Origin: Phyto melanocephala
Lineage: Eukaryota; Arthropoda; Insecta; Diptera; Rhinophoridae
DNA: 64,000 nt
Reading direction: 5' to 3'
NCBI GenBank assembly: GCA_941918925.1
Contig: OW799235.1
Coordinates: 44,112,701 to 44,176,700 of the forward strand
A model generated the notes under the pieces. It saw only the letters and a list, made by a program, of their open reading frames with translations, was not told the DNA's origin and did no database searches. Position numbers and translations under genes: made by a program. Position 1 is the stretch's first letter. Each line of letters starts with the position of its first letter. Below, piece by piece: positions 27,364 through 64,000 of this stretch.

Positions 27364-27478
27364 ATCAATACTTACGTGCGATTGAGGTTATGCTGAGTTT
27401 GGTAGGTTCAGAAACAGAAGACTTCAGTACCGGTTAAATCAATTAGGCAAATTCTTACCACAAAAAGAATTAAAAATT

Positions 27479-30361: not shown

Positions 30362-30796
30362 TACACACTCATGAAAATTAAACACATAACTTCGACAGCA
30401 TATCACCATGAAACTTTAGGTAGTATTGAGAGAAATCACAAAGTTCTAAATAAATACATGCGTTCTTTCACATTCGCATATAATACTACTCCACATACAT
30501 CCACACATTTCACCCCATTTGAACTGATATATGGTAGATTAGCATCAATGCCAACCGAACCTATGTCAGATGATATATTTTACAATTATGAAGATTATGT
30601 AACAGAATTGAAAATAAAATTGAAACATGCACATGATATGGCAAACAAAAATTTGTTGAAATACAAAATAAAACAAAAAGTTGCTAAAGATAAGAATACT
30701 AATAATATTAATATAAAAATAGGAGATAGGGTATTTTTAAGAAAGGAAAACGCAAGGAAAAGCGAAAACCAATACATTGGTCCATTTTAAGTAATA
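30362..30796 (+). pseudogene. Gypsy integrase, catalytic Glu and C-terminal part
   Basis: STAYHHETLGSIERNHKVL near 30395 carries the third catalytic residue (Glu of the DDE triad). FTPFELIYGR follows near 30520, then a Lys-rich linker and IKIGDRVFLRKENARKSE near 30715, the usual integrase C-terminal fold. It ends at 30790 just before a dispersed repeat. This completes the scattered pol gene of the 12.8-kb gypsy element. Confidence 0.8.
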
Positions 30797-31528: not shown

Positions 31529-31679
31529 AATAGAAAATGTGAATACATATCACAATTTTAAAAGATAATAAACCAGTGACCATACATAAGAACAGATTAA
31601 AATTTTAAGCATTTTTTTTGAGTAGTTTGTAAAAGAAGAAAAAAAAAATATATTGCATATTATATATTTTTTTTTCTTT

Positions 31680-47590: not shown

Positions 47591-47599
47591 TTAATTTTT

Positions 47600-47705
47600 T
47601 TTATTGCATTTTGAAAACAAAAAATTTGACGAATTTTGCAGGAAAAATTTTTTCGCCATTAAATTTTTAATAACTCCGAAATAGTAATAGATAAGTAGAT
47701 ATAAT
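47600..47705. repeat. Fragment related to the TIR transposon arm
   Basis: A stretch with GACGAATTTTGCAGGAAAAA and TTTTTAATAACTCCGAAA matches the inner part of the right arm near 46005-46080, in the same orientation. It abuts the truncated Penelope fragment. Confidence 0.55.
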
Positions 47706-47849
47706 ATAAGCGTTCTGGCTAAATAAACAAATAAATTCATCCTTATGGAGATTCAATGAGGATGAATTTTCTTGACCGTTTTGGGTTTGATAAAAATTTT
47801 TTTTGTTTTTTAACAAAAAAAATTTATTTGTAAACAAATTGAATACATG

Positions 47850-48110
47850 CATGTAGGTTCACAGACGGACAGACAGATAGATTAAAATACAGACACACAA
47901 ACGGACAGATGTACATAAATTCTTGCCCTTTTCCGTTTTTTTGTTATTTAAAGTTTGGTTTGAATTTGTGATCGTCTAATTCTGTAAGTGTTTACATTAA
48001 AATTCTCACTATAAAATTTCAAGTACGAAAATGTGTGTGTGTATGTTTGTGTGTGTTTATTATATACATATGTATGTCACAGACGGACAGGCAGATAGAT
48101 TGAAATAAAG
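47850..48110. repeat. CAGA/GACAG microsatellite and left direct repeat
   Basis: Contains GACGGACAGACAGATAGA-like simple repeats and a 106-bp segment (47986-48091) that recurs in direct orientation at 59537-59646 with a few differences. TG runs occur within it. Confidence 0.7.
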
Positions 48111-48391
48111 GCAGATATGCGTACAAACAAAATTATGTTTACGTTATTTTTTAATAATGTTGTTCTGATACAATTTTAAAGCTCGCTTACTTGTGTGTGT
48201 GTGTTTAAAAGTGTTACCATTGTTTTACGCTAATTAAAAAGTGTTACCATTGTTTTACGATTGAGATATTCCTCTAATGATGCGTTTTTATAGTTCATTA
48301 TATAAGTATTTCTATACGTGAAGTGAAGTCAAGATTCACATTAAATTTTTTATAAAAGTAGAAAAATATTGAAAATTCATTAATATAAGAG

Positions 48392-48739
48392 ATGAATTCT
48401 AAGGAATTTGAAGTAACAGAAAGCCCCATTATTATTTTCATCGATGAGGAGGATGAAAATTGTGTGCGTCAAGGTTCCCTGATCAGTCCAATACTATTTT
48501 CATTGGACGAAGAGGACAACAATATTAATAATAGTTTAGAAAATATATTATTAAATTATATTAATAATAATACTAATAATAATAATATAAGTAACTTTAA
48601 TGCAAGTTTAGAAGATAGCGTAGAAAATGAAATTCCAAATAATCAGTTAGGATATTATACTAATAAAGTCTTAGAATTTTTGTATGATGAGGAAGGTGAT
48701 AAAATATCATCAGACTATAAAGATGAATTTTTGGTTTGA
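48392..48739 (+). CDS. Acidic, Asn-rich small protein of unknown function
   Basis: 115 codons from ATG at 48392 to TGA at 48737-48739. It is strongly acidic (runs of Asp/Glu) with an Asn-rich middle (about residues 48-70) that looks like repeat expansion of AAT codons. No domain recognised. It lies just left of the small viral-type gene at 49054 and may belong to the viral element, but nothing in the sequence proves it. Confidence 0.45.
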   Translation: MNSKEFEVTESPIIIFIDEEDENCVRQGSLISPILFSLDEEDNNINNSLENILLNYINNNTNNNNISNFNASLEDSVENEIPNNQLGYYTNKVLEFLYDEEGDKISSDYKDEFLV

Positions 48740-49053
48740 TTCTGTCGGGGATTAAGCCATTTTAGATATAAGTATTGAATAATAATAATAATATATATAA
48801 TAATATTAAGAAGAAAATAAATACATTTTTTAGTTTAATTATATCCTTTTTCTCTCGCTGTTTTAAATTTTCTCTTAGAGACATAGAAACAGTTTTTAGT
48901 AAGAGTTTTAAATGAGTATTATTTTGTCAAAATGAGTAATTTTTTTACTATTATTATTAGATTAATTTAAATTTTAATAAATTACTAAAACAATTTTCTA
49001 TAAATAGCAGTTAAAGACAATTTTCTCTACATTAAATAAATAAAATTGCAACG
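48740..49053. other. AT-rich spacer
   Basis: No gene is seen. It separates the acidic ORF from the next small gene and ends with a short region before ATG at 49054. Confidence 0.5.
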
Positions 49054-49400
49054 ATGAGCACTAACACGGACTTAATAACCACATTCAATCAGCTAAATAC
49101 GAAGCAAATGTTAAGAATATGATAGCTAGGGAAAATTATCTTATTACTGGAGCTGAGAGAACAACCACAAAGTATGGAGACGTTATTATGTTGGAACTGG
49201 GACCAAGTATATTCTACTTACCTAGAAAATGTAATGCACTGACTGATAAAGATGTGGAATACTTATCTACTGGGATGTATTTAATTTCCAAAATTCCTGT
49301 TAATAGTGATGGACACAATACATTCTATAGACTGGAGATTAAGACTGCGCCTACCATGAAAGATTATTATAATTTTAATCACTTTACCGCTTATAAATAA
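49054..49400 (+). pseudogene. Small viral-type gene with one frameshift
   Basis: An ATG at 49054 opens a frame for 22 codons; the conserved part is in the next frame, continuing to a stop at 49400. Coding quality is good in the second frame back to about 49086, so a one-base change near 49080 has split the gene. The visible product (YLITGAERTTTKYGDVIMLE, then SIFYLPRKCNALTDKD) looks like a compact beta-rich protein of about 110 residues. A nucleic-acid-binding role is conceivable but unproven. I recall similar small proteins beside insect Polinton-like genes. Its stop lies 8 bases before the gypsy LTR. Confidence 0.5.
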
Positions 49401-49404
49401 ATAA

Positions 49405-49408
49405 AAAT
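49405..49408. repeat. Target-site duplication AAAT of the young gypsy element, left copy
   Basis: AAAT precedes the 5' LTR and recurs at 55865-55868 after the 3' LTR. Confidence 0.75.
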
Positions 49409-50010
49409 TGTAACAGAGTGAATAATATATTTATATTTTATTATTATTTCTTATTATATAATTATTACCTGTTTTATGAATTGTAATATTTTCATTTACA
49501 TTATTGCTTAAATGTTTGAATTGTTTATTTGTTTATGTACTGGTCACCTTAATGATGTAGCAAAATATAATTATTATCAATAATCAATTTCGTATAAAAA
49601 AAATAAAGAGAGAGTATAAAATATCATAAGTATAATTTCTCACTATCTCCGTTATTTATGTATATTTGTTTTTGTATTATTTTCCTTGTTTTGTACTAGA
49701 CGACTTTTGTAATTTTACTAAATCTAAGTAAGCTAAGTGCATCAGTAATTTTTGTTCATTCCTAACGCAACTTTTGATCAATAAACATCATTTTAAAGTA
49801 GATGCGCATTCTTTTCATTTTTTAATAAAAAACCCAAAATATAAATATTAATTGCTCAGACACAGGAAGACCTTTATGGACTACTGTGAATAGCAAAACT
49901 GAGGTCGAACACTGGCGACATTGCCTTGTTTGAACCAGTTATAACTAAATAACATATTTTTAAACACAAATCCCAACTCCTTCTTAATAAAGTGGAAACA
50001 CTTTATTACA
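49409..50010 (+). repeat. 5' LTR of the young gypsy element
   Basis: 602 bp, offset 5854 from the 3' copy. A promoter would be inside; AATAAA at about 49601 and TCAATAAACATC at 49779 are candidate RNA-end signals. Confidence 0.92.
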
Positions 50011-50011
50011 A

Positions 50012-50024
50012 CTGGCGCCCAACG
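50012..50024 (+). promoter_or_regulatory. tRNA-Lys primer-binding site
   Basis: CTGGCGCCCAACG begins one base after the LTR end. TGGCGCCCAACG is complementary to the 3' end of a lysine tRNA (the Lys1,2 type of retroelements). Confidence 0.8.
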
Positions 50025-50439
50025 TAAAATTAAAAAAAAAAGAAAAAAAAAAACAAATATTAAACATATTTGCTGCAAAATAATATAAATTTTTTGCGAA
50101 ATTCACACAAAATTGAAGAATTCAATAAAAACAGTTTTGCTGCATTACTTGTTGTTGTTCGGCTGAATATCATCTGCAAGCAGTATATTGTTGTTGTTCG
50201 GTTGAAATCAATTTGCCTGCAATATTATTGTTGTTGTTTTTCAATTTTATTTTAAACTGCTATCGTTTGGTTTATTGCTCTAAAACGGTAATAACTCTTG
50301 AAGTATATGCGTTGTTGTTGCAGTTGCTGTTTTAATTTTTACGTAAAATAGAATTGCACATTTGATCTTATATATACAAATATTTACATAAATCGAAAGG
50401 TCTTGAAGTAAAGATAGGGTTTTCGGAAAATTTTTAAAA
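50025..50439 (+). other. Leader of the young gypsy element
   Basis: 415 bases between primer site and the Gag-Pol ATG. It includes three TTGTTGTTG runs and an imperfectly repeated TGTTGTTCGG(C/T)TGAA motif (50152 and 50190). No gene. Confidence 0.6.
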
Positions 50440-53400
50440 ATGCCAAGATTAACCATGAATTCCCAGAGTACTGAAATGCAAAATTCAAACGTAATTTCAA
50501 CACCCGTTGTACCTACAAATTCTACTATTAAAAGCAGCAATGTTAATAACAAGCAATCGTGCTCTGCTTCAAGTGGAAGTAACCAAACACAAAATTCAAA
50601 CATCAGTGCTCCTGTTAATATTAATTTAACAGAACGCCAATTCTCTGAACTTTTAGGTTCGCTGAATGTTCGCCAAGATATTAGAGCAACATTTAGTTCC
50701 TGTAGTGCTCGTTTTAATGGGGGACGTAGTACATCGAAGGTAGAAGATTTTATAGCCACAATCTTAGTTTTTAAAGAGGCTGAACATATTTCCGATTCAA
50801 TGGCATTAACTAGTTTACCTTTATTGCTTGAAGGTTATGCATCGACATGGTGGCAAGGTGTTAAGCATGAGGCTAAAAGTTTTGAAGAAGCTATAGAACT
50901 TCTGCGCAGCGCATTCGCTCCTCCTAAACCAGATTGGAGAATATATGCAGAAATTTTTCAAGATAAACAAAAATTGTTTGAGACCACAGACAGTTTTGTT
51001 TGCAGAAAACGGCGTCTCTTTGCGCAACTCAAAGAAAGACTCCCAGAGAGCACGAAAATAAATATGATATTTTCTTTAATAAATATTCAAATTCGTGAAA
51101 AAATTCCTCGAGAAAGCCTAGAAACTTTCCAAGATTTGCTTTCGAAGGCTCGCGATATTGAATTGTTAAATAATGAGAATAATCCGCAATCTTCAAGAAA
51201 AGCGTTAGAGATAAGAGAAAATTCTCAGGCCAAATGCTCTTTTTGTAGAAAGAAAAATCACACTGCTGATGTGTGTTATAAACGTCTAGAGATTGAGAAA
51301 AAGAAAAAACCAGAAGAAGTTAAGCTAAATTGTTATGGTTGTGGAGCTGTAGGTTTTTATAGATCTAACTGCCCTACATGCAACTACAAAACGGTGTTAG
51401 AAAGTCCAAAAGAAATGGATTTTCATAGCATTCAAACCAATATTGTTGGTCGTAATGTGCCTACTGTAGAAATAAATGTGAATGGGTTAAACGGTGAAGC
51501 GTATCTTGATACAGCGGCCAGAACTAACATAGCTGGTTATTCTTTGTACAGAAAGCTTTTAGAAAAGCAAGTCAAGTTCCAGTCAGTTTTTGCAGAAATA
51601 ACTCTAGCTGATGGAGTATCTCGAAAAGAGAACGTATATTCAACCATAGTTGATATAATGATTGGTAACCGCTTAAAGCGAATTCGTTTTATTTGTCTAC
51701 CCAAGGCTAAAGATAACAGAACGCTACTCGGCATTGACTTTTTAGAGCAAGCTGGTATAGTAATGGATCTAGCCCAAAGAACGTGGTATTACAAAGATGA
51801 CCCTAAAAAAGTCTTTGAGTTTAAGTCCAAAGCATCCAAGGTCATAAATAACGTAAATATTAATCAAACAAATTTAACAGAATGTATGGAAAGTTTGTCT
51901 AAACAAAGCCATGTTAATGAATTTATGTCATGGTTTGAATCTAACAACAAAAATAATTCAGAAAATGTGCCAACTCTTAAAACTATTTATTCTTCTCAAA
52001 TAGATTACTCTCCTAGAGGAATTTTTAAAATTTTCGAAGATTCTTTACCTCAAAATTTTGAAATGCCAAAGGAAAACGATGTCAATTTATTTCCTCCGTT
52101 AAAGAAAAAGAAAATGGATTCAGATTCTCCTATTACAAAAGCGTTTGCACTTAACGCAATCGATTTTAATATATGTGAAGACGAAAATTATCATTTAAAT
52201 GAAATGCAAAAGAAAGATTTAATAAAACTTTTAAGCTCCTATGAAGATATTTTTGAAAATATTTCCTCACCTATAGAGGGAATCGAACACAAAATTGATA
52301 CTGGAAGTCATGCACCCATAGCTAATACACCCTATAGAATTTCATTGGCAATGAAAGTAAAATTAAAACACGAACTAGAGAAAATGCTACAAGAGGGAAT
52401 TATAGAAGAAAAAGAATCTCCTTGGGCTTTTCCGGTCGTGTTAATACCAAAAAAAGATAACTCTATACGACTTTGCGTAGACTATCGAAAACTTAATTCT
52501 ATAACAGTAACCGATACATACCCATTACCTAGGATGGAAGATCTTTTGCATGCTGCAAAATCTACGCCTTATATGTCTACAATTGATTTGAAATCAGGAT
52601 ACTGGCAAATAAAAGTTAATGATAAAGATAAGTTGAAAACGGCGTTTACAACACCTTTCGGAATATACGTTTTTAATAGAATGCCATTTGGGCTTAAGAA
52701 TGCCCCAGCAACTTTCCAAAGGGTAATAGATAAGATTAAATCCAGTCTACCAAATATTCTTATTTTAGCATATATTGATGACATTATCATATGTTCTAAA
52801 GATTTTAATACTCACTTAAATGATCTCAACATTACTTTTAACAAACTAAGAACAATTGGTTTTCATTTAAACAAAGATAAATGCTATTTCTGTAGACCTA
52901 AGGTAAAATACTTAGGACATATCTTAACAAAAGACGGAATACAAATTGATCCTGAGAAAACTTCAGCAATTGTAAAAAGGCCAGCTCCCAAAAACATCAA
53001 GCAACTTATGTCATTTTTACAGACTTGTTCTTGGTTTAGAAGATTTATTCCAAATTTTGCGGAAATATCAAAACCTCTTTCTAATTTGACCAAAAAGAAT
53101 GCTGTATGGAAATGGTCAGTTAATGAGCAAAATGCATTTTTAAAACTAAAAAAAAAATTAACAACTCCACCAATTTTGCAACAGGTTAAAGAAGATGAAC
53201 CATTTTTAATAAGAACCGATGCAAGCAATTATGCTATCGGAGCTGTGTTATTGCAGGGGGAGAAAAACTCCGAACACCCTATAGAGTATGCAAGCCGACT
53301 TCTGATACAAGCAGAAAGAAACTACTCTACCACTGAGAGAGAGGCTTTAGCTGTTGTATGGGCTGTTCAAAAATTTAGAGGATATATTGAAGGCTCTAAA

Positions 53401-55215
53401 GTAACTATTTTTACAGATCATCAACCACTTAGATGGCTATTTACGTTAAAATCTCCAACCGGAAGATTGGCAAGATGGTCGCTGTTATTACAAAGTTATA
53501 ATTTATCATTCAATTATACTCCTGGAAAACAAAATATTATTGCCGATACTCTTTCTCGACCACCATGTATGAGTGAACTATGTACTGAATCTTGTGAGTG
53601 CAATGCGGTAGAAATTGATTTTCCCCGTGAAGGCTTAGAAGAATTCCGTAAGGCTCAACTTGAAGATGAGCAAATAAAAAATATTATATCTTCCTTCGAA
53701 AATAATGACGAAAATGTCACTAGACACACAAATCGTGGTTTTATTATGATTGATGGAATACTATATAAGTACAACTCCGATCAGGATTCCGAAAATGGTC
53801 AATTAGTAGTACCAAAATTACATCGTCAACAAATTTTAAATAAATATCATAATGACCCATTATCTGGACATTATGGTATAGATAAAACCACAAGTCGTAT
53901 AACACCACTATATTATTGGTCAGGTATAAGAAATGATATTGCAAATTATGTTAAAGCATGTGAAGAATGTAAAAAATACAAACCAACAAATCATAAGCCA
54001 TGTGGATTATTGCAAACACTTAGCAGCAATAAAAGATTTGAAATTGTTGCAGTAGACTTGTTTGGTCCTTTGCCTAAAACTATAGATGGATATCATTGGA
54101 TTCTAATAGTAGAAGATATTTGTAGCAGATGGGTAGAACTTTTTGCATTAAAGGAAGCAACTGCCGAAAACTGTGCTTTAACACTTCTAAATGAAGTTAT
54201 TCTGAGATATGGGGTACCAAGAAGATTACACACAGATAATGGTACACAATTTATTTCTGCTCTAATGCAAAAACTTACGTATTGTTTAGGCATTAAGCAA
54301 TCTTTCACAGCGATATATCATCCTCAAGCTAATCCTGTGGAAAGAAAAAATCGTGATCTGAAAACCCAACTCTCAATTTGTGTCGGTAAAGACCATACAA
54401 AATGGAATGTAATGCTACCAGCAATAAGATTTGCTATGAATACAGCAAAATGCGATAGTACCGGATTTTCTGCTGCCTTTTTGACATTTGGTCGTGAGCT
54501 TAGAACTCCAACAGAAGTAAACTATGATTTCAAAGCTATAATACAAGCAGAAAATTTCATTCCACAAATTACTCCTTATTTGTTAAAAATGGCTGATACA
54601 TTAGAAATTGCTAACGAACTTCAATATAAATTGCAAGACCGAAATAAAGCTGTTGCAGACCTTAAGAGAAAACCTTCAAACAACATAAAAATTGGAGATA
54701 AGGTGTTAGTCGCAACGCATACACTAAGTAAAGCTAAAGATGGAATTACGTCAAAATTTGCTCCTCGTAGAGATGGCCCATATATAGTTACTGGAACCAA
54801 GGGCTCATCATGTTTTATAATTTCTGCACTAAATTCACCACATTTACCACTTGCAACAGTGCACACATCCGCTATATCACCATATGAGGGCACTTCTGAA
54901 GCTCCAATATATCCAATTCGTAAACGAGGCCGTCCGAGCAATAATCCAAGTAAAATCCAACAACAAGAAAACAACAACCAACAACAGAAAAACAACAGCC
55001 AACAACAAGACAATAACCAACAACCAGAAAGCAACAAACAACAAGTTAGCAACAGAAAGCAACATTTTAACCAACAAAAATATAATAATCAGCAAAACTA
55101 CAACTCAACGTTATATGTAAACAATAAAACCGAAGAAATATATAAGCCAAGAAATAACAATCCAACAAATGCCTTGAGAAGATCAGCGCGACTAAAGGAT
55201 AATCCAAGAACATGA
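50440..55215 (+). CDS. gag-pol: Gag-Pol polyprotein of the young gypsy element
   Basis: 1591 codons without a stop. Gag has a capsid region (about residues 90-250) and two zinc knuckles at 266 (CSFCRKKNHTADVC) and 298 (CYGCGAVGFYRSNC; one His position is replaced). The protease has LDTAARTNIAG with Asp 357, so the usual Gly after Asp-Thr is Ala. The reverse transcriptase has YIDD at 778. RNase H has RTDASNYAIGAVL (Asp near 927) and FTDHQPLRWL near 993. Integrase has a HHCC zinc domain (about 1128-1175) and catalytic D1206, D1266 and E1301 (D,D-35-E spacing). The C-terminus (about 1500-1580) is Gln/Asn-rich. Gag and Pol in one frame implies no frameshift step. Apart from the odd protease triad everything looks functional. 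Confidence 0.93.
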   Translation: MPRLTMNSQSTEMQNSNVISTPVVPTNSTIKSSNVNNKQSCSASSGSNQTQNSNISAPVNINLTERQFSELLGSLNVRQDIRATFSSCSARFNGGRSTSKVEDFIATILVFKEAEHISDSMALTSLPLLLEGYASTWWQGVKHEAKSFEEAIELLRSAFAPPKPDWRIYAEIFQDKQKLFETTDSFVCRKRRLFAQLKERLPESTKINMIFSLINIQIREKIPRESLETFQDLLSKARDIELLNNENNPQSSRKALEIRENSQAKCSFCRKKNHTADVCYKRLEIEKKKKPEEVKLNCYGCGAVGFYRSNCPTCNYKTVLESPKEMDFHSIQTNIVGRNVPTVEINVNGLNGEAYLDTAARTNIAGYSLYRKLLEKQVKFQSVFAEITLADGVSRKENVYSTIVDIMIGNRLKRIRFICLPKAKDNRTLLGIDFLEQAGIVMDLAQRTWYYKDDPKKVFEFKSKASKVINNVNINQTNLTECMESLSKQSHVNEFMSWFESNNKNNSENVPTLKTIYSSQIDYSPRGIFKIFEDSLPQNFEMPKENDVNLFPPLKKKKMDSDSPITKAFALNAIDFNICEDENYHLNEMQKKDLIKLLSSYEDIFENISSPIEGIEHKIDTGSHAPIANTPYRISLAMKVKLKHELEKMLQEGIIEEKESPWAFPVVLIPKKDNSIRLCVDYRKLNSITVTDTYPLPRMEDLLHAAKSTPYMSTIDLKSGYWQIKVNDKDKLKTAFTTPFGIYVFNRMPFGLKNAPATFQRVIDKIKSSLPNILILAYIDDIIICSKDFNTHLNDLNITFNKLRTIGFHLNKDKCYFCRPKVKYLGHILTKDGIQIDPEKTSAIVKRPAPKNIKQLMSFLQTCSWFRRFIPNFAEISKPLSNLTKKNAVWKWSVNEQNAFLKLKKKLTTPPILQQVKEDEPFLIRTDASNYAIGAVLLQGEKNSEHPIEYASRLLIQAERNYSTTEREALAVVWAVQKFRGYIEGSKVTIFTDHQPLRWLFTLKSPTGRLARWSLLLQSYNLSFNYTPGKQNIIADTLSRPPCMSELCTESCECNAVEIDFPREGLEEFRKAQLEDEQIKNIISSFENNDENVTRHTNRGFIMIDGILYKYNSDQDSENGQLVVPKLHRQQILNKYHNDPLSGHYGIDKTTSRITPLYYWSGIRNDIANYVKACEECKKYKPTNHKPCGLLQTLSSNKRFEIVAVDLFGPLPKTIDGYHWILIVEDICSRWVELFALKEATAENCALTLLNEVILRYGVPRRLHTDNGTQFISALMQKLTYCLGIKQSFTAIYHPQANPVERKNRDLKTQLSICVGKDHTKWNVMLPAIRFAMNTAKCDSTGFSAAFLTFGRELRTPTEVNYDFKAIIQAENFIPQITPYLLKMADTLEIANELQYKLQDRNKAVADLKRKPSNNIKIGDKVLVATHTLSKAKDGITSKFAPRRDGPYIVTGTKGSSCFIISALNSPHLPLATVHTSAISPYEGTSEAPIYPIRKRGRPSNNPSKIQQQENNNQQQKNNSQQQDNNQQPESNKQQVSNRKQHFNQQKYNNQQNYNSTLYVNNKTEEIYKPRNNNPTNALRRSARLKDNPRT

Positions 55216-55245
55216 AAGCCTGGTTGCATCATCGGGACGATTAAT

Positions 55246-55262
55246 GCACCAGAGGGGGAGGT
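55246..55262 (+). promoter_or_regulatory. Polypurine tract of the young gypsy element
   Basis: CCAGAGGGGGAGGT immediately precedes the 3' LTR. Confidence 0.85.
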
Positions 55263-55864
55263 TGTAACAGAGTGAATAATATATTTATATTTTATTATTA
55301 TTTCTTATTATATAATTATTACCTGTTTTATGAATTGTAATATTTTCATTTACATTATTGCTTAAATGTTTGAATTGTTTATTTGTTTATGTACTGGTCA
55401 CCTTAATGATGTAGCAAAATATAATTATTATCAATAATCAATTTCGTATAAAAAAAATAAAGAGAGAGTATAAAATATCATAAGTATAATTTCTCACTAT
55501 CTCCGTTATTTATGTATATTTGTTTTTGTATTATTTTCCTTGTTTTGTACTAGACGACTTTTGTAATTTTACTAAATCTAAGTAAGCTAAGTGCATCAGT
55601 AATTTTTGTTCATTCCTAACGCAACTTTTGATCAATAAACATCATTTTAAAGTAGATGCGCATTCTTTTCATTTTTTAATAAAAAACCCAAAATATAAAT
55701 ATTAATTGCTCAGACACAGGAAGACCTTTATGGACTACTGTGAATAGCAAAACTGAGGTCGAACACTGGCGACATTGCCTTGTTTGAACCAGTTATAACT
55801 AAATAACATATTTTTAAACACAAATCCCAACTCCTTCTTAATAAAGTGGAAACACTTTATTACA
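55263..55864 (+). repeat. 3' LTR of the young gypsy element
   Basis: 602 bp, indistinguishable by eye from the 5' LTR, followed by AAAT. Confidence 0.92.
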
Positions 55865-55941
55865 AAATAAAATAAAAACTATATAAAACATGAGTAAAAT
55901 TGATATTTATTTAGTCTTTAACAACATATTGATTTAGAAAG

Positions 55942-56199
55942 ATGGATATTATTGATGATTTTCTGAATAAATTTGAAAATGTAATCTTTGAAGAAGATTT
56001 AGATTTGTTACGTACATTTAAGAAACAATATTCCAATACTGAAGCATTCAATAAACCTTGCCCTCACAATGATTCCGATGGAGACGTAGTTGGTAGTTGT
56101 GGCTGTTACTTTTTCCAAATGAGAACGGAAAAAGTTATGAAGATAATAGAAACATATCAAAAACTAATTAAGAGATTGAAAAATAATATCAAAATTTAA
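55942..56199 (+). CDS. Small protein of the viral element, unknown
   Basis: 85 codons from ATG at 55942. A charged helical N-terminus is followed by a Cys/His cluster (CPHNDSDGDVVGSCGC) that may bind a metal, and a basic helical C-terminus. No known domain. It lies directly downstream of the gypsy insertion and upstream of the next viral gene on the same strand, with the same AT-rich codon use. Confidence 0.5.
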   Translation: MDIIDDFLNKFENVIFEEDLDLLRTFKKQYSNTEAFNKPCPHNDSDGDVVGSCGCYFFQMRTEKVMKIIETYQKLIKRLKNNIKI

Positions 56200-56326
56200 T
56201 TGAACTTGAAAGTGCTATTAATCTTATAGAAAACACATTAGCTTACTATATCCTTATACACACAATCTCATAGTTGAGTACTTATTCTTAAAATCATAAT
56301 TTAGAAAATTTTAGAAATTGCTCAAT

Positions 56327-56803
56327 ATGCATCGCAGTATTGTCTTCATCGACTTGCAAGGCTTTAAATCTAATTCAAATAATTTTATTGCAAAAGAAAT
56401 TGCAGTTGTGTTCAATAAAATTGAATATTTTAATTTTATTATAAAACCTCCATACGACTTTAATTGTTTGTCAGCAAATAAACAAAAAGAAGCACATTGG
56501 CTAATGAAAAATTATCACCACTTGAATTGGAATGATGAAATACTGACTTTTGATAGTGTATATAAATTTTTAAAAGCAAATACTAAATACTCTAATATAT
56601 ATGTCAAAGGTGATGAAAAAAGGAAATGGTTAGAGAAAATTCTACAGCAAACGGTTTTTAATATTGAAGATCATGCTTGTGCTAACTTTAAACAAATGGA
56701 ACTGAAGTACTCTGACCACATCAATTGTCATCACTACAGTTATGGAATTTGTTCATTAAAAAATGCTCTTTTACTAGAAAGGGAAAATTTAGTTTTAACA
56801 TGA
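56327..56803 (+). CDS. Conserved viral-element protein, possibly nuclease-fold, unknown
   Basis: 158 codons from ATG at 56327 (the open frame extends 3 codons further without ATG). It opens with SIVFIDLQGFKSNSNNFIAK, where an Asp sits after a hydrophobic strand as in DEDD-type RNase-H-fold exonucleases. It has WLMKNYHHLNWND in the middle, IYVKGDEKRKWLEKIL, an Asp-His pair, and a C-terminal C-HHYSYGIC cluster. I recall similar proteins beside Polinton-like genes in arthropods, where they are uncharacterised. A nuclease role is only a guess, since no full acidic set is evident. Confidence 0.55.
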   Translation: MHRSIVFIDLQGFKSNSNNFIAKEIAVVFNKIEYFNFIIKPPYDFNCLSANKQKEAHWLMKNYHHLNWNDEILTFDSVYKFLKANTKYSNIYVKGDEKRKWLEKILQQTVFNIEDHACANFKQMELKYSDHINCHHYSYGICSLKNALLLERENLVLT

Positions 56804-56889
56804 AAAAAAAATACTATTACTTATTTTAATAATTAAAATATAAAATAAACAAAATTATGTGTGTTTTTTATTATTTCTTTATTTGAAAA

Positions 56890-57172
56890 TTAGTTAAAAA
56901 TCTTAAGCATAAATGGCCACAATTAAAAGCATTAGTTTTTTGATATCTTTTATAGTTGTATTTAGTATTAGTTCCTAAATATTCTACCCAATGTGGTCTA
57001 CCCAATGTGTGCCTTGTCCTTTATTATTGTCCAAATTGATAATTCCCCACTCTTTTCGTCGTGGACATCTAGGAAGTTTATCTCTCATATATACTCCTCT
57101 AAAATTGGGAATATAATTCTTTCCAAATACTTTTAAATCTATGTCTGTGAGAGGTCTGTTGGGTAGCTGTTT
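56890..57172 (-). pseudogene. Adenain-type cysteine protease, frame-broken
   Basis: No long frame exists here, but minus-strand pieces read as the virion-maturation protease of adenovirus-like and Polinton-like viruses. After LTDIDLKVFGK (about 57130) the frame shifts, then FRGVYMRDKLPR (near 57100) and GIINLDNNKGQGTHWV (near 57045-57000) with the catalytic His. A 14-base tandem duplication at about 56990-57003 then breaks the frame, and the catalytic-Cys motif NCGHLCLRFL follows near 56920. The region between His and Cys is shorter than I would expect. It cleaves capsid precursors in related viruses; here it is inactive. It lies just downstream of the minor virion gene on the same strand. 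Confidence 0.7.
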
Positions 57173-57174
57173 TA

Positions 57175-57598
57175 TTAGTTTTTTGATACATTATTATAAA
57201 AAATTCCATATCCATTTTTATGTGGTTTCAGATATAAGCCTTTGCCCATTGCTATTGCCTCTAATGTTCTGTTATGACGCTTGCTCTCTTCAAGTTGCTG
57301 TCTACCATTTTTAGCTGTTCTTATGGCTTTAACAATTGATGATCCACCAGAAGCTAATGCACCCAATGTTCCGAGTGCAGCAAGTATTGGAACAATAGGT
57401 AGGAAGCCGCCAACTTTTGGTACTTTAATGATTCTTGGAATTTTAATTTCTGATTTCCTTCCACGAAATGAATTTTTAATTATTTTTCGCGCAGTTTTAA
57501 TAGCATTTTTAACATCTTGAGGTTTTTGTTTTTTTAAGACAACATTTGCTGCTTTAATTGCACTATTGAAAATATTTCGCTTATAGGGGCTTTTCTTG
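57175..57598 (-). pseudogene. Minor virion protein, C-terminal core-like part (downstream of SINE)
   Basis: The open frame runs from the SINE junction to a stop at 57175. It is first very basic (IKTARKIIKNSFRGRKSEIK), then a hydrophobic Gly/Ala/Pro segment (VGGFLPIVPILAALGTLGAL), then a charged helix and GKGLYLKPHKNGYGIFY. That layout resembles the adenovirus core/minor-capsid-like proteins (pX or VI type) reported with adintoviruses. It has lost its N-terminal part to a SINE; the other part is at 57825-58221 in the same phase. Confidence 0.7.
57585..57598. repeat. SINE target-site duplication, left copy
   Basis: AGGGGCTTTTCTTG; the right copy at 57825-57838 is AGGGGCGTTTCTTG, one mismatch. 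Confidence 0.85.
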
Positions 57599-57824
57599 AG
57601 TGCCCCTGTTGACTAGTCAGTAAAGGACAAGTCAGTTGTTTGGGGGTTGCGGGTTCGATTCCCGCCGGAGACTCTGGAATTGTCTGCTTCTCTTTCTCTT
57701 CTATCCTAAATATTTCTATTCTTATTCTATTCTTCTCTCTATTAAGGCGTCACAATGGACCGTAATGGTCTCCGAGTGAAGGTGTGAGGGTAACTTTGCA
57801 CCAGCCTTACCTACCTTCCTACCT
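57599..57824 (+). mobile_element. tRNA-derived SINE
   Basis: 226 bp. The head ends with GCGGGTTCGATTCCCGCC, a perfect tRNA T-arm with the RNA polymerase III box B (GGTTCGATTCC). A weaker box-A-like region lies about 40 bases upstream. The body is tRNA-unrelated and CT-rich. 14-bp duplications flank it, and it interrupts the minor virion gene. It is not a functional tRNA because no cloverleaf forms on the 5' side. Confidence 0.85.
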
Positions 57825-58221
57825 AGGGGCGTTTCTTGTTGCATTTAACACCCATACCAAATTTTACTTTAGCTTTCATTGCGTTACTAACAAATAATGC
57901 GTTTAGTTTTTCTCCAACTGTACTATCTCTAGCTTTAACTCTTTCCCAAGCTTTATCTGCTAGTTCTTTATCTGCTTGATGTCTTTTATTAATATCAGTA
58001 TTCTGAGAATAAGCAATATCATGAACTCGGCAAGCTACATCCAGGGGATTAATTCCCTTATCTCCTCTTTCTAAACGCTTTTCCAGTTTTGTTCCAGGTC
58101 CACTGTACTGATAACCGGGTAGATGAAGTTCTACTGATAGTGAATTAATTAATTTATTAACTAGTCCTTTTCCGTGCACGGAAGTTTTTCCACTAAATTT
58201 ATTATTTACATATACAATCAT
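57823..58221 (-). pseudogene. Minor virion protein, phospholipase A2 part (upstream of SINE)
   Basis: 133 codons from ATG at 58221, ending at a chance stop just past the SINE junction. A calcium-loop motif YSGPGT is at residues 39-44 and the catalytic His-Asp pair at 67-68 (ACRVHDIAY), with an ADKELADKAW helix after it. This is the parvovirus VP1-type phospholipase A2, used by such viruses to breach the endosomal membrane on entry. Adintoviruses are known to carry such a domain. The reading phase matches the frame at 57175-57598, so one gene was split by the SINE. Confidence 0.8.
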
Positions 58222-58329
58222 TTATAAACTGCAATAATGGTTTGTACATAGAAAAAATACATATAAAAAAATTTATAAATTAATTACATATTCGTGTGTA
58301 CACTTATATATGTACACTCAGTCATAAAA

Positions 58330-58689
58330 ATGCGTTTAATAAGACAACATAAAAATATTATAGTAAAAAATTTAGATTTCCAAGAAAGTAAAAACGGAAC
58401 TAAACACAGCTGTTTGTTGCCAAACTCAATAAGAGCACTTATAGTTGGACCGTCTAATTGTGGAAAAACAAATGTAATGCTTAGTTTAATTGAAAACCCT
58501 AATGGATTAAAATTTAAAAATATATTTTTATACTCAAAATCCCTACATCAACCAAAATATCAATATCTTAGAAAATTAATTTCATCTGTAAAGGGTATGG
58601 GACATTATACTTTTTCAGAAAATGAATATGTCGTGCCACCTCAAGAAGCTAAGTCAAATTCAATAATGATATTTGATGATGTTGCTTGA
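58330..58689 (+). pseudogene. FtsK/HerA-type packaging ATPase, truncated
   Basis: The open frame begins at 58294 but the first ATG is at 58330. Walker A is GPSNCGKT (near 58447) and Walker B is IMIFDDV (near 58670). It is the N-terminal half of the A32-like genome-packaging ATPase of Polinton and adintovirus genomes. The protein stops at 58689, directly after Walker B, where foreign sequence starts. The usual sensor and arginine-finger regions are missing, so the ATPase is dead. Confidence 0.8.
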
Positions 58690-59093
58690 GTAGTGTGTTT
58701 ATGCCGGTACCAGCGCACTTTTTTCCATACAAAGTGCACACATGCCATTAGGGGTGTTCATGAAAAGTTTTTTAGAATAATGTTTCTAGTATGAAAATGG
58801 GATATGTTTGTACTAATCGTGAATACCCTAATGTTAGATCGTCGATATTTATACAAATGTGCACATCATACATGGGCGTAGTCTTGGTTTAGTTTTGTGG
58901 GGGTTGGAAGCTTATACATTTTTGATAGTATATGGCAGCAAAAGAGTTACTTACCAAAAGAAACACATATAATATAAATCGTTTTTGGGGGGAGAAATGT
59001 CCCTTTTTCCCTCTTCATGTATACGCGCTTGCATACATATTGTAAGTGTATGTATGTATGTATGTATGTATATATGTAGGTGTGAAAATTGAG
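58690..59093. other. Inserted or unrelated stretch after the ATPase
   Basis: The ATPase frame ends abruptly and no known gene follows. GCGCACTTTTTTCC and AAAGTGCACAC form a short inverted pair near 58713-58737. A (TATG)n run lies near 59041-59070. Confidence 0.4.
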
Positions 59094-59525
59094 TGAAGAA
59101 GTATGTGTTTATTATATATAACGTAAACAAACAAACGGACTAGCAAAAGACAGACGGACTGACAAAAAGATAGACAGAAGGGTAGAGAGATGGAATAATT
59201 GATTATTAAGATTTCTTGTTGTTGTTAGGGTATATTTTGGTCATTTGTTTGTTTATTTTAATGATCGTCTTACACAAGCACTTATATATTTTTAAGTCTT
59301 ACAAGTACGTGTGTATTACGTAGGCAAACAGACGGACTAAAAGAAAGACAGATGGACTGACAGAAAGACAGACGGACTAACAGATAGACAGAAGGGTAGA
59401 TGGATGTATTGACCACTATGATTCCTTGTGTTAATATATTTCTGCTTATTTATTGTTTAGTAAAATGATCGACTTATTCTACCATTTATTTTTTTTTAAG
59501 TCTTACAAGTGCGTGTGTTTATTTT
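59094..59525. repeat. Two diverged tandem ~215-bp units with GACAGACGGACT repeats
   Basis: Units of about 59094-59305 and 59306-59525 share GTGT(G)TATTA, a block of GACAGACGGACTGACA-type repeats, GACAGAAGGGTAGA, and an end TTTTAAGTCTTACAAGT. Similar simple repeats lie at 47850-48110. Confidence 0.6.
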
Positions 59526-59536
59526 CTAAGTCAATC

Positions 59537-59646
59537 AAGTGTTTACATTAAAAATCTCACTATAAAATTTCAAGTACGAAAATGTGTATGTGTGTATGTT
59601 TGTGTGTGTTTATTATATACATATATGTATGTCACAGACAAACAGG
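59537..59646. repeat. Right direct repeat
   Basis: AAGTGTTTACATTAAAA through GTCACAGACAAACAGG, the direct-orientation counterpart of 47986-48091, about 11.5 kb apart. Confidence 0.7.
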
Positions 59647-60036
59647 AGATTTCGTTCTTAATTTCATCATAGTAAGAGCATTTTAAACTGATATCATATT
59701 GATTAGTGAACTTATATTGAAATAGACTATAAAAAAACTGACCTGAGAAAGGAATAGAAAGAAGGAGATAGAAAAAAACCTGTTTGAAAGATGTATGTAT
59801 GTAAATGTATATGTATGTTTAATATAAAAAAATACATTTTTATTGTGTTCTTAAAAATTTTTCAGTAATTAAATTTCTATTTCTGTAAATTTTTGGTTGT
59901 GGTTTGAGATTATTTTTTAATGTTCCTTCTTTTTATAATTCTCATTTAGTTTACAATAATTTATTAATAAATATAGAGAATAGTAAAGGTTATATTTCAT
60001 TATTAAATATAATTTTGTATCACTAACATCGCTAAA
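59647..60036. other. Region upstream of the polymerase gene
   Basis: AT-rich, no gene seen. It would contain the promoter of the polymerase gene, but no clear motif stands out. Confidence 0.4.
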
Positions 60037-61160
60037 ATGGGAATTTTTAATTGCGAATTTTGTGGAAGTGTATTCAGTCGTAACTTTTGTTTAAAACGGC
60101 ATATACGAATAGTTCATCGAGAAAATTCAATAGAATGTAAGATTTGTAAAATAAAATTTTCAAATCGTAAGGACTTTTTAAACCATCGTCATTTAATAGA
60201 ACATAAAAAGGAGATGGAAAATACTTGCATATATTGTGATATTTGTAAATCATATATTAATAAAAAATTATGGTCATATCATATACGTACAAACAAACAT
60301 AAAGATAAGTGCGTTGGCCAATTAAATAACATTAAATGCACTACTTCAGTTTTTAAAAATCGTATTGCAACGTTTAGAATTGAAAACGATGATATCAATA
60401 ATTTGATTCCTGAAACATTTTTGTTTAACATTGAGGAAAAAGTTATAAGCATTTTAAAAGAAATGCTACAAAAACATATCAATATCAAATTTAATTGTGA
60501 ACTATTTTGTAAATATATGTTAATAAAACAAGAAGAAACATATACAATCGATTTGATGTCACATCAAACAAAAATGATTATCGTTAGTTCATCGACAACA
60601 ACAGATGATATTCTACAACTTTACTCTACTCAATGTAATATTCTAGTAAAAAAGATGAGTGAATTTCAAGAACGTGATAGTGGATGGACCTTAATAGAAA
60701 TCGCTTATCTTGAAGTAAATATCAATGAGTATAGATGTATAAAAGGTTCTCAATATATATGCTTACCGCCAGCAATTAAAAGAAAAACAGCATGCATAAA
60801 TGTTCAAAATACGGATGAATATTGTTTTAAATGGGCCATAGTATCGGCATTATATCCAGTCGCTAAGGATTCAAACAGATGTTCATCATATAAAATTCAA
60901 GACATTAAAGCTGATATTATAGCATTGCAAAATAATATAACTTTAAAATTTAAAAATTTAAATTTTCCTTTGGCCGTTAACAAAATTAAGGACTTTGAAT
61001 CAAATAATCCGGATATAAGTATTAATGTTTTCGGTTTGGAGGATGATAAAATAGTTGGTCCATATTATTTCACTCAAAAGGAAAAATTAAATCACATTAA
61101 TTTGCTATTGTTGGAGGACGAAGAAAGATTGCACTACGTATGGATTAAAAATATATCAAG
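60037..61160 (+). CDS. polB: DNA polymerase B of the viral element, exon 1
   Basis: ATG at 60037, 375 codons. Three C2H2 zinc fingers at the start (CEFCGSVFSRNFCLKRHIRI near residue 7, CKICKIKFSNRKDFLNHRHL, and a third ending YHIRTNKH). A long middle region follows, then the segment CINVQNTDEYCFKWAIVSAL near residue 260, common in insect Polinton-like polymerase proteins before the catalytic part. The frame ends in a stop that overlaps a GTAAGC donor; splicing of 61161-61232 joins it in phase to the catalytic half. Product: the N-terminal DNA-binding region of a protein-primed type family-B polymerase that copies the viral genome. Confidence 0.8.
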
Positions 61161-61232
61161 GTAAGCTAAATTACATAAAGAAAAACAATTTGTATACAGC
61201 TTAAAAATATTTATTATCTTATTTAATTACAG
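61161..61232 (+). other. 72-nt intron in polB
   Basis: GTAAGC at 61161 and TTAATTACAG ending at 61232. AT-rich with a pyrimidine-poor but typical fly-size short intron. Removing it keeps the frame (phase 2, the split Arg codon AG|G) and makes the conserved block continuous; without splicing the protein stops at 61162. Confidence 0.85.
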
Positions 61233-63582
61233 GTTGATTAGCAGTCAAGTAACAAGTCATAATCATTATATATATGTATGCAATACTTGTTTAATTTATT
61301 TTCACAATGAAGCAACCTTAAGAAAACATAAGGAGGAATGCATCAAAATGATAACAAGAATGCCTAATAGAGATGATAATAAACTTAGTTTTAAAAATCT
61401 AAAAAAGCAAATGGATATACCTTTTGTAGTTTATGCTGATTTCGAATGTATTCTTGAATCAGTTAATATTCACAATTCAACTAACGTTACATCAGTACAA
61501 AAACATATTCCATTTGCTTACAGTTATTATATTAAGTGTTCGTTTGATACAAATTTAGATATTTTTAGAACATATAGTGGTGAAGATTCGACAAAACATT
61601 TTTTTCAAAATTTAGTTAAGGATGTAATATATATTTATAATAATTATTTAAGTATAGTAAAACCAATGAATTTCTTATCACCACTTCAGCAGATAAAACA
61701 AAATGAGGACCCAATTTGTCACATTTGCAATAAATTGTTATCTCTTGATGATAGAGTAGCTGACCATTGTCATTTAACTGGAGAATATAGAGGTCCCGCA
61801 CATAATAAATGTAATTTACAATATAAAATTGCGAACTTCATTCCAGTATTTTTTCATAATTTTTCGGCATATGATTGTCATTTGTTCGTGAGAGAACTTT
61901 CATCTGTTGAAGGTGATATAAATATCATTCCATTAAATAAAGAATTGTATGTGTCCATATCAAAAAAAATTTCAGTCGATAATAAAAATACAATTGAACT
62001 GAGATTTTTAGATTCATTTCGGTTTATGTCATCAAGTTTAGAAAAATTAGCAGGTTATTTATCTAATGAAGATTTAAGAACTATAAGATCAGTCTATCAA
62101 AATGATAATGAATTCGAATTAGTAAAACGGAAAGGTGTATTTCCATATGATTATCTAGATTCTGTGAATCGTCTTCAAGAAGTTCAATTACCAGCACGTT
62201 CATTATTTTTTAATAAATTAACTAATCAAATGTGTAGTGAGGATGACTATAAACATGCAGAAGAAGTGTGGAGTATGTTTCATTGTAAAACTATATCTGA
62301 CTATTTACTTTTATACTTGAAGGTAGATGTATTATTATTATGTGACATCTTTGAAAATTTTCGAAGAGTTTGCAAGAATATTTACAATTTAGATCCCTGT
62401 CAATATTATACAGCACCTGGTTTGTCTTGGGATGCAATGTTGAAAACAACAGAAATAGAGTTGGAATTGTTAACAGACATTAATATGTATAATTTTGTTG
62501 TACGAGGTATTAGGGGTGGTATTGTTCAGTGTAGTAAACGACACTCAATAGCTAATAATAAATATGTTAACGATTATGATTATACAAAAGAATCGAATTA
62601 TATAATATATTTAGATATAAATAACTTATATGGTTATGCTATGTCGCAATACCTTCCTTATAAAAATTTTGAATGGATTGAAAATATTGAAGATTTTAAT
62701 ATTAATGATGTTAAAAATGATTCACCTATAGGATATATATTGGAAGTAGATTTAGAATATCCAGCTGTATTACATGATTATCATAATGACTTACCATTTT
62801 GTGCAGAAAATAAGAAGATTGAAATTATGAATCAATCTAAATTAATTACAGATTTAAATAAAAAATCAAATTATGTAATACATTATATTAATCTTCAACA
62901 ATGTATTAGTCATGGATTAGTTTTAAAAAAAATACATAGAATTCTTAAATTTAATCAATCGAATTGGTTAAAAAAGTATATTGATTTAAATAATCATCAT
63001 AGAACTTTAGCTAAAAATTCATTTGAACAAAACTTTTTTAAATTGTTAAATAATTCAGTATATGGCAAGACTATGGAAAATGTAGATAAAAGAAAAGACA
63101 TAAAAATTGTGTGTGAATGGGAAAGTAGAGGTAAGAGGTTAGGAGCTAGAGCTCTTATAGCTAAACCTAACTTTCATAGTTCTCTCAAAATTCATGATGA
63201 AATGATAGCAATTCAAATGAATAGAGCACGAACTGAATATAATAAACCTATTTATATTGGCTTCACAGTTTTGGAACTATCAAAATGGCAAATGTATAGT
63301 TTCCATTATGACTATATGAAACCTAAGTATCGTGAAAATATTAATCTAAACTATATGGATACTGATTCTTTTATTTATGACATTAAAACAGCTGATCTGT
63401 ATGAAGACATTCGAAATGATATTAACACACATTTCGATACGTCTGCATATCCAGTTCAAAATAAGTTTAATTTTCCCCTAACAAACAAAAAAGTTTTAGG
63501 AATGATGAAAGACGAATGTAATGGTAAAATAATTAAGGAATTCATTGGTTTAAGAGCTAAAATGAGTAGATATAATATTGGA
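61233..63582 (+). CDS. polB: DNA polymerase B of the viral element, exon 2 (3' truncated)
   Basis: About 783 codons to the truncation. A further C2H2 finger starts the exon. Exonuclease motifs are YADFECI (Exo I, Asp/Glu about codon 69), HNFSAYDCH (Exo II) and YLKVDVLLLCD (Exo III). Between Exo I and II is a Cys/His cluster, CHICNKLL ... DHCHLTGEYRGPAHNKCN, like the zinc/HNH segment of endonuclease VII. Polymerase motifs follow: YLDINNLYGYAM (A), LNNSVYGKTMEN (B) and YMDTDSF (C, near codon 709). All catalytic residues are intact. The C-terminus is lost at about 63582, where a 121-bp tandem repeat starts and adds GVLGHSGG before a stop at 63606. Confidence 0.88.
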
Positions 63583-63863
63583 GTTCTGGGCCACAGTGGA
63601 GGATAAAATTATAGATACACTAAAAATTATTTGAAAATATATTTTTTTTATCTATGCCACTATGTCGTTAATTATGTAGCATACTTTTAGGATGTATGTA
63701 ACAGTTCTGGGCCACAGTGGAGGATAAAATTATAGATACACTAAAAATTATTTGAAAATATATTTTTTTTATCTATGCCACTATGTCGTTAATTATGTAG
63801 CATACTTTTAGGATGTATGTAACAGTTCTGGGCCACAGTGGAGGATAAAATTATAGATACACT
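63583..63863. repeat. 121-bp tandem repeat, 2.3 copies
   Basis: GTTCTGGGCCACAGTGGAGG starts at 63583, 63704 and 63825. The first two units seem the same throughout; the third stops after about 39 bases. It truncates polB. Confidence 0.9.
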
Positions 63864-63936
63864 TTTTATTTTGGTTGATATAAATTTTGTTATTGGTTTT
63901 TTTGTCTCAAGTTAAATTTTTTATTGTCTATGCAAT

Positions 63937-63968
63937 AAAAAAATCATCCGTATGAGGATGATTTTTTT
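63937..63968. other. 13-bp perfect hairpin
   Basis: AAAAAAATCATCC, loop GTATGA, GGATGATTTTTTT. It could be an element end or simply a terminator-like hairpin; no partner repeat is visible before the window ends. Confidence 0.6.
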
Positions 63969-64000
63969 TTTGTTAAAATTTTTTTTATTTTAACTAAAAT

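What the first reader, a model, noticed from the sequence alone, without database searches (positions are those of the whole stretch)
48392..63582. Endogenous adintovirus/Polinton-like virus with PolB, ATPase, PLA2 virion protein and adenain remnants
Directly seen: PolB catalytic motifs, Walker A/B ATPase, a PLA2 His-Asp pair with a calcium loop, and adenain-like GTHW and NCGHLC motifs, all within 7 kb. Known: this combination is characteristic of adintoviruses and related Mavericks. Inferred: one integrated viral genome, now broken by a SINE, a gypsy element and other sequence. The species-level virus may be undescribed in flies.
Basis: partly seen in the sequence, partly recalled or inferred. 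Interest (0 to 1): 0.88.

Follow-up and report, generated by a model that had tools for sequence, protein, structure and literature searches.

The report
Nested and palindromic fly Maverick viruses
The stretch holds remains of virus-like Maverick DNA elements nested inside one another in a fly chromosome, and the middle one is a mirror-image element with two polymerase genes, a form repeated around the genome that may reveal how these elements copy their DNA.

Summary
They are insect Maverick/adintovirus genes, a known kind, but not one viral genome. Flanking DNA and sister copies in the same assembly show three nested elements. A (left end about 47694) carries the PLA2, protease and ATPase genes; its ATPase is split by B (from 58689), which carries the polymerase; B's polymerase is split by C (from 63565). 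B and C have exact 6-bp target duplications, and the missing ATPase and polymerase parts lie 31.7 and 19 kb further on. A gypsy element and a SINE also sit in A. The polymerase 'break' at 61161 is a 72-bp intron. B is a palindrome: two inverted polymerase arms, 99.8% identical over 4,880 columns. In this genome 26 of 27 close polymerase copies form 13 such convergent pairs; of 8 further palindromes tested, 6 show AGTAG tips and exact 6-bp duplications. I read them as integrated snap-back genomes of a protein-primed virus-like element: a new variant of a known kind. The replication mechanism is inferred.

The parts
47694..58688 (+). Element A, left part of an old Maverick; candidate left tip AGTAGATATAATAT at 47694 (its right end was not located)
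   Evidence: 28-nt tip region 86% like C's tip; terminal region 47769-48359 matches end regions of other copies; 56.6-58.69 kb matches seven sister copies at 92-98%. The tip motif alone is not above chance.
48392..48739 (+). Acidic small ORF (115 aa) next to the end region of A; the matching stretch is also at the corresponding end of C
   Evidence: L022 988-2491 matches 49406-47986 at 90%; not in the C5 copy, whose match stops at 48841
49054..49400 (+). Small unknown gene, frameshifted near its start; shared by sister copies
   Evidence: no homologue found; L018 579-1156 matches 49406-48841, 93%
49408..55865 (+). Gypsy LTR retrotransposon inserted in A (repeats matched at 49408-50011 and 55262-55865; ORF 50407-55215; 4-bp duplication AAAT)
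   Evidence: absent from the C5 copy, from C and from L024
55942..56199 (+). Small unknown ORF (about 85 aa)
   Evidence: stretch shared with the C5 copy
56327..56803 (+). DnaQ/RNase H-fold protein; its relatives carry a Maelstrom-like E...C-x2-H-x4-C pattern (H is Y in this copy)
56874..57190 (-). Adenain-like protease remnant: frameshifted, with a 14-bp tandem duplication (56983-57009) and without a stretch that sister copies have
57175..58221 (-). PLA2-bearing virion protein (CAP), one ORF in sister copy L007, split here by a SINE
57598..57824 (+). tRNA-like SINE, absent from 7 of 7 sister copies compared, flanked by 14-base repeats that match at 13
   Evidence: tRNA-like boxes read by eye
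58330..58688 (+). A32-like packaging ATPase of A, N-terminal part, cut by element B; rest at G000:C3:44203120
58683..58688 (.). 6-bp target duplication of B (TGCTTG), repeated at its far end
58689..63564 (+). Element B, outer left arm of a palindromic Maverick (tip AGTAGTGTG); inverted partner at G000:C3:44198242-44203121
   Evidence: (99.816% over 4880 columns)
60037..63562 (+). PolB of element B (N-terminal C2H2, endonuclease VII-like domain, polymerase motifs); C-terminal part lies beyond C at G000:C3:44195233-44195517
61161..61232 (+). 72-bp GT-AG intron in PolB; same 72 bp in the inverted arm; donor string at the corresponding place in C's PolB
63559..63564 (.). 6-bp target duplication of C (AAAATG)
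63565..64000 (+). Start of element C (tip AGTAGATATAATAT, 121-bp tandem repeats 63582-63863), a 19-kb Maverick running to about G000:C3:44195233

Best explanation
The finding is a nest of three Maverick/adintovirus elements in a calyptrate-fly chromosome. Element A (virion-protein, protease and ATPase genes) was hit in its ATPase gene by element B, and B was hit in its polymerase gene by element C; both insertions are integrase-type, with a 6-bp duplication and AGTAG tips (shown). B is a palindrome of two inverted polymerase arms and belongs to a family of palindromic elements in this genome (shown). Mechanism (inferred): Mavericks replicate as linear DNA by protein-primed strand displacement. 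Now and then the growing strand folds back part-way and copies itself, giving a roughly unit-length snap-back molecule with the same end twice and without the genes of the other half. Such molecules keep valid terminal repeats, so an integrase, presumably supplied in trans by full elements, inserts them. Palindromes carrying PolB in both arms then persist and multiply.
For: A's ATPase stops at 58688 and resumes at G000:C3:44203120 (96.6% identity to sister copy L007) with TGCTTG on both sides. B's PolB tail was predicted beyond C and found at 44195233-44195517, with AAAATG on both sides. B's arms: 5 mismatches and 4 gap bases in 4880 columns, plus 2 mismatches and one 49-base gap in 931 inner columns. 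Of 27 PolB copies at >=86% identity, 26 form 13 convergent pairs; 3 copies at 79% form none; of 25 copies at 60-62%, none pair within 6 kb and one pair lies within 25 kb. Besides the window's own pair, 8 of the other 12 were read: inverted arms 99.0-99.97% identical in the stretches fetched, 3 loci self-complementary across all of about 6.3 kb. An ATPase-side palindrome exists at C3:91.296-91.311 Mb. Of 8 palindromes tested for ends (7 PolB-side, 1 ATPase-side), 6 have AGTAG tips and exact 6-bp duplications. No hit to integrase, capsid, penton-like or ATPase proteins in the 8 PolB cores at E 1e-3. No tip motif at up to 2 mismatches inside 6 of 9 loci. Six palindromes measure 12.6-15.4 kb, near the published complete 14,567-base adintovirus (PMC8363768).
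Against: No free palindrome or replication was seen. Groups of palindromes share one structure at different loci (L028/L029; L030/L033/L034), so multiplication of ready-made palindromes explains much, and fresh fold-back events may be few. Arm identity within an element does not always exceed identity between elements: between elements it ranges from 84.2 to 99.8%, and L030 and L031 agree at 99.8% over 1588 columns while L030's own arms agree at 99.4%. Gene conversion could also keep arms alike. One of 27 copies is unpaired, and three of the paired copies are partial matches. Two of 8 end tests gave no answer (L040/L041 ran off the fetched end; L044/L045 no inverted match). In L028 and L029 a two-mismatch tip motif lies in the central loop, and L035 has one too. 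Two of the 13 pairs lie 19-22 kb apart: the window's own, with C inside, and C4:110.27 Mb, which has an ATPase copy between its arms and which I did not read. Raw reads were not available.
Confidence: 0.7

Rival explanations
1. One decayed adintovirus genome: PLA2, protease, ATPase and PolB belong together and repeats broke them up.
For: The same gene types sit together in single elements elsewhere: L003 has PLA2-integrase, adenain and PolB on one contig, and L007/L013 have CAP, protease, ATPase, integrase, capsid and PolB in one stretch.
Against: That sister copy, close to A in CAP and ATPase, has its PolB on the other strand and only 62% identical to the window's; A's ATPase resumes on the far side of B with a target duplication.
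Confidence: 0.03
2. The palindromes are chromosomal inverted duplications, or head-to-head double insertions, of ordinary Mavericks.
For: Long inverted repeats can arise by chromosomal fold-back repair (recalled); the region is dense in nested elements; a weak tip motif lies in the central loop of L028 and L029.
Against: Unique flanks with an exact 6-bp duplication right at the outer tips in 6 of 8 tested palindromes and in B; no tip motif inside 6 of 9 loci.
Confidence: 0.1
3. Assembly artefact, for example missed-adapter chimeric reads that mirror a sequence.
For: Such reads make near-perfect inverted copies (recalled).
Against: An artefact would mirror the flanks too; here flanks differ and carry target duplications, the arms carry differences of their own, and element C sits in one arm of B only.
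Confidence: 0.04
4. A transposon subfamily with giant terminal inverted repeats kept alike by gene conversion after insertion, without snap-back replication.
For: Several loci share the same structure and centre (L028/L029; L030/L033/L034), and arm identity is not always above between-element identity.
Against: Different centres occur with nearly the same arm (L030 and L031, 99.8% over 1588 columns, loops 0 and 135 bp), and a palindrome was formed from the opposite half too, which points to repeated fold-back.
Confidence: 0.2

Closest known systems
Sf Maverick 1 and 2 of Spodoptera frugiperda cells (PMC5803895; passages and the Maverick section read)
   Same: A32-like ATPase, integrase with chromodomain, PLA2-bearing CAP, adenain-like protease, PolB with endonuclease VII domain
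   Different: Not described as palindromic or nested in the section read; its 8 small ORFs are in tandem on one strand, whereas CAP and protease oppose the ATPase here
Drosophila-associated adintoviruses 1-3 (PMC8363768; passages read)
   Same: PolB, integrase, capsid, protease and FtsK-like ATPase (given for adintovirus 1); 13.3-14.6 kb; a protein of adintovirus 2 matches the model of the 56327-56803 ORF (Foldseek E 7e-8, 21% identity)
   Different: Metagenomic contigs; no palindromic form in the passages read
Adenovirus snap-back (defective, palindromic) genomes (recalled; no call)
   Same: Palindromes with one end duplicated, from protein-primed strand-displacement replication
   Different: Extrachromosomal; here integrated with target duplications, and multiplied
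Maelstrom MAEL domain (PMC4408791, PMC2628886; passages read)
   Same: For the 56327-56803 ORF: DnaQ fold, first D kept while the catalytic E is changed, and a metal-site-like E...C-x2-H...C pattern in relatives
   Different: No sequence-level match; DinG and DnaQ entries score higher than Maelstrom in fold

Membership tests
[quoted passage not shown]
   7312 homologues, many named insect proteins among the best 120, some with the PolB Pfam domain PF03175; Pfam on the window's own ORF gave only the endonuclease VII part above cut-off
Maverick/Polinton (insect adintovirus type) | Retrovirus-like integrase (with chromodomain) | tested here: met
   In sister copy L013: rve 9.4e-13; Chromo 0.0017, below cut-off; A's own integrase part outside the window, 95.6%. 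Not in the window; no hit in the 8 palindrome cores
Maverick/Polinton (insect adintovirus type) | Double jelly-roll major capsid protein | tested here: met
   L013 3431-4294: PF21738 3.2e-104; C has it (91%). No match in the window or the 8 cores
Maverick/Polinton (insect adintovirus type) | Adenain-like protease | tested here: met
   L007: His, Asp and Cys motifs in one frame; Pfam Peptidase_C48 0.0014 and Peptidase_C5 0.0039, both below cut-off; broken in the window
Maverick/Polinton (insect adintovirus type) | Terminal inverted repeats and 6-bp target duplication | tested here: met
   B and C and 6 of 8 further elements. For A only one candidate end was located
Adintoviridae | OTU-like N-terminal domain of PolB and hexon recognisable by BLASTP (PMC11071296, passages) | not tested
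   No reference adintovirus hexon was compared
Snap-back (palindromic defective) genome | Two inverted near-identical arms with the same terminus, the genes of the other half lost | tested here: met
Snap-back (palindromic defective) genome | Free replicating molecule arising from strand-displacement replication | not testable with these tools
   Only an assembled genome was available
Maelstrom (56327-56803 ORF) | MAEL-domain sequence family | tested here: inconclusive
   Pfam Maelstrom not among matches of the 15 members; PF13017 matched only one gene region of the genome, C2:13.562 Mb; hhalign with one exon of that gene gave probability 0.7 on a scale of 100; fold and motif agree

The most novel reading that the evidence does not exclude
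Palindromic Mavericks are a multiplying class of virus-like satellite in flies: they carry two convergent polymerase genes and valid ends, lack integrase and capsid genes, and spread by using those of full Mavericks in the same genome, regenerating their arms through fold-back replication.
Probability: 0.5. Interest if true: 0.9.

Novelty: new variant of a known kind. Interest (0 to 1): 0.8.

Why it matters
How Mavericks replicate and whether they behave as viruses is an open question. Integrated palindromes with clean target duplications are what a protein-primed, strand-displacing, linear genome could leave behind, so they turn that question into something checkable in DNA. Elements with polymerase but apparently without capsid and integrase would also point to a helper-satellite relation inside one genome. 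The PolB intron warns annotators not to call this gene broken.

Tried and rejected
Viral-contig scans with the single PolB, PLA2 and ATPase pieces and with the alignment of the 56327-56803 protein gave no relative; the PolB alignment gave one distant contig, L001, and three contigs in bacterial MAG records, L002-L004. The phage collection and PDB sequences gave no PolB match. The 49065-49397 piece had no homologue. The single-genome reading and a PolB damaged at 61164 were dropped and 78/80. Kinship with Maelstrom at sequence level was not supported. A genome-wide count of the DnaQ-fold gene was asked for four times and never answered. In print, my searches were: Maverick with Maelstrom (10 papers), ichnovirus or polydnavirus with Maelstrom (none), Maelstrom-domain/virus-encoded/piRNA terms (20 of 80 listed), a Polinton/PLA2/insect set (9 papers), and palindromic, snap-back, head-to-head or inverted-duplication terms with Maverick/Polinton (12 of 52 listed; 130, 12 of 78 listed). 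I saw titles and abstract starts only, and no palindromic Maverick among them; the unlisted papers were not seen. The founding adintovirus paper was not held.
Full report
What is there. The window lies at G000:C3:44112701-44176700 of a 740-Mb, 9-contig genome. Each was searched as its own piece.

Known kind. Insect Mavericks with ATPase, integrase with chromodomain, PLA2-bearing CAP, adenain-like protease and PolB with an endonuclease VII domain were described from Spodoptera cells and compared with other insects (PMC5803895). Drosophila-associated adintoviruses are in print (PMC8363768). A contig in a MAG record, L003, has PLA2-integrase, adenain, a small protein like the C-terminal part of our CAP (41% over 44 residues, E 1e-5), and PolB on one stretch. 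In the same genome, one sister copy (L007/L013) holds what the window lacks: integrase (rve 9.4e-13), double jelly-roll capsid protein (PF21738 3.2e-104) and its own PolB. The ATPase piece has 92 matches, fragments included, 18 of them with one and the same score; two copies differ by 0.12% over 3399 bases. So part of the family multiplied recently. No rate calibration was made.

How each gene of A is broken. CAP is split by a SINE at 57598-57824 that 7 of 7 sister copies compared lack, flanked by 14-base repeats that match at 13. The protease has a 14-bp tandem duplication and lacks a stretch that the sister copies have. The small gene at 49054 is frameshifted (read by eye). A gypsy element with identical 604-base repeats lies between 49408 and 55865; the C5 copy, C and L024 lack it. 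The ATPase stops at 58688.

Three elements, not one. The sister copy L007/L013 matches A at 92-98% from the DnaQ-fold gene to the ATPase but has PolB on the opposite strand, and that PolB is only 62% identical to the window's. I therefore looked at the flanking DNA. Copies at C5 and C1 show how elements of this kind end. The sequence at 63565 is such a tip, inside the PolB gene. This predicts that the rest of that PolB lies beyond a whole further element. It does: residues matching the tail of the Lucilia homologue (75%) lie at G000:C3:44195233-44195517, with AAAATG on both sides of the inserted element C, which is about 19 kb long and has its own PolB, capsid gene, ATPase and DnaQ-fold gene. 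In the same way the ATPase of A resumes at 44203120 with TGCTTG on both sides of element B. Further genes of A, with a 95.6%-identical integrase part, follow. The order of events is A, then B into A, then C into B.

PolB is not frameshifted at 61164. Of 120 listed homologues, 76 match both the N-terminal and the C-terminal piece, and in 65 of these 76 the two matches meet at the very same residue; 44 have no match to the N-terminal piece. The DNA between is 72 bp with AAG|GTAAGC and TTACAG|G ends; the inverted arm has the same 72 bp, and C's PolB has a donor string where its first reading frame ends. This is a spliceosomal-type intron; splicing itself was not observed, and some homologues are gene models that may have been spliced by the predictor.

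B is a palindrome. Window 58689-63564 recurs inverted at 44198242-44203121 with 5 mismatches and 4 gap bases in 4880 columns; the inner arms differ by 2 mismatches and one 49-base gap in 931 columns; about 1.2 kb lies between the arms. Without C, B measures about 12.76 kb.

It is a family. A genome search with the PolB piece gave 56 rows, with 55 of 460 candidates scored, so counts are lower bounds. I merged two rows of one broken copy. Of the 27 copies at 86% identity or more, three of them partial, 26 form 13 convergent pairs and one (C1:144.24 Mb) is single; 3 copies at 79% form none; of 25 copies at 60-62%, none pair within 6 kb and one pair lies within 25 kb. By my own arithmetic, random placement of 27 copies in 740 Mb gives about 0.02 pairs within 25 kb. 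Besides the window's pair I read 8 of the other 12. Inverted arms, within the stretches fetched: 4 mismatches in 3310, 1 in 3166, 3 (plus 3 gaps) in 2131, 6 (plus 3 gaps) in 2866, 1 in 716, and three loci self-complementary over about 6.3 kb at 99.0-99.4%. Between elements identity ranged from 84.2% to 99.8%, so within-element identity is often but not always the higher: L030 and L031 agree at 99.8% over 1588 columns. The cores give no hit to integrase, capsid, penton-like or ATPase proteins at E 1e-3; they hold pieces of a small ORF (2 of 8) and short CAP bits (4 of 8). An ATPase-side palindrome lies at C3:91296257-91310623, with arms carrying the DnaQ-fold gene, protease, CAP, ATPase and a 272-aa ORF; it is the only opposite-strand ATPase pair within 6 kb among the 48 rows that I compared (the other 44 rows, mostly fragments or less similar copies, were left out).

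Inserted as units. Of 8 palindromes whose ends I fetched (7 PolB-side, 1 ATPase-side), 6 have AGTAG tips on both sides and an exact 6-bp duplication (GGTAGG, TAGACT, AATTAA, TAGAAC, AACATT, TACCTT); one ran off the fetched stretch and one gave no inverted match. B makes a seventh. The six measure 12.6 to 15.4 kb. Inside the palindrome stretches I found no tip motif with up to two mismatches in 6 of 9 loci; L028, L029 and L035 have one two-mismatch match each to the shortest motif, in L028 and L029 within the central loop. I take these for chance but did not test it.

Mechanism. Adenoviruses replicate by protein-primed strand displacement and throw off palindromic snap-back genomes (recalled). 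Mavericks have the same polymerase class. A fold-back part-way along the growing strand yields a molecule with one end twice, as seen here from both halves of the genome. Such molecules have proper ends for the integrase. Two groups of loci with one structure each show that palindromes also multiply as such. The fold-back step, trans supply of integrase and any packaging are inferred.

Noticed in passing
window 56327-56803: DnaQ-fold protein with a Maelstrom-like metal motif in its relatives; Foldseek also matches ichnovirus ORFs and a protein of Drosophila-associated adintovirus 2.
   Followed up: partly
G000:C3:91296257-91310623 (L024-L026): Palindrome made from the ATPase/virion-gene half instead of the PolB half.
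   Followed up: partly
L013 and L017: Capsid proteins of two copies are 91% identical while their PolBs are about 61% identical over the aligned part: polymerase modules may be exchanged between Maverick lineages.
   Followed up: no
window 30796-31537: Dispersed repeat that also occurs in L013 and L017 beside the capsid gene and in the L020 stretch of the C5 copy.
   Followed up: no
L008-L012 (downstream of the ATPase): Internal short tandem repeats give many overlapping self-matches and make close copies differ in this stretch.
   Followed up: no
L003 912-2120: PLA2 and integrase-like domains in one ORF in a contig filed under a Muriicola MAG; probably eukaryotic or viral contamination (integrase part read by eye).
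   Followed up: no
window 46914-47600, 8494-9609, 21760-27387: GIY-YIG ORF (PF01541; Penelope-like by eye), gypsy envelope (PF07253 1.4e-56) and a long BEL/Pao-like ORF (by eye): the region is dense in mobile elements.
   Followed up: no
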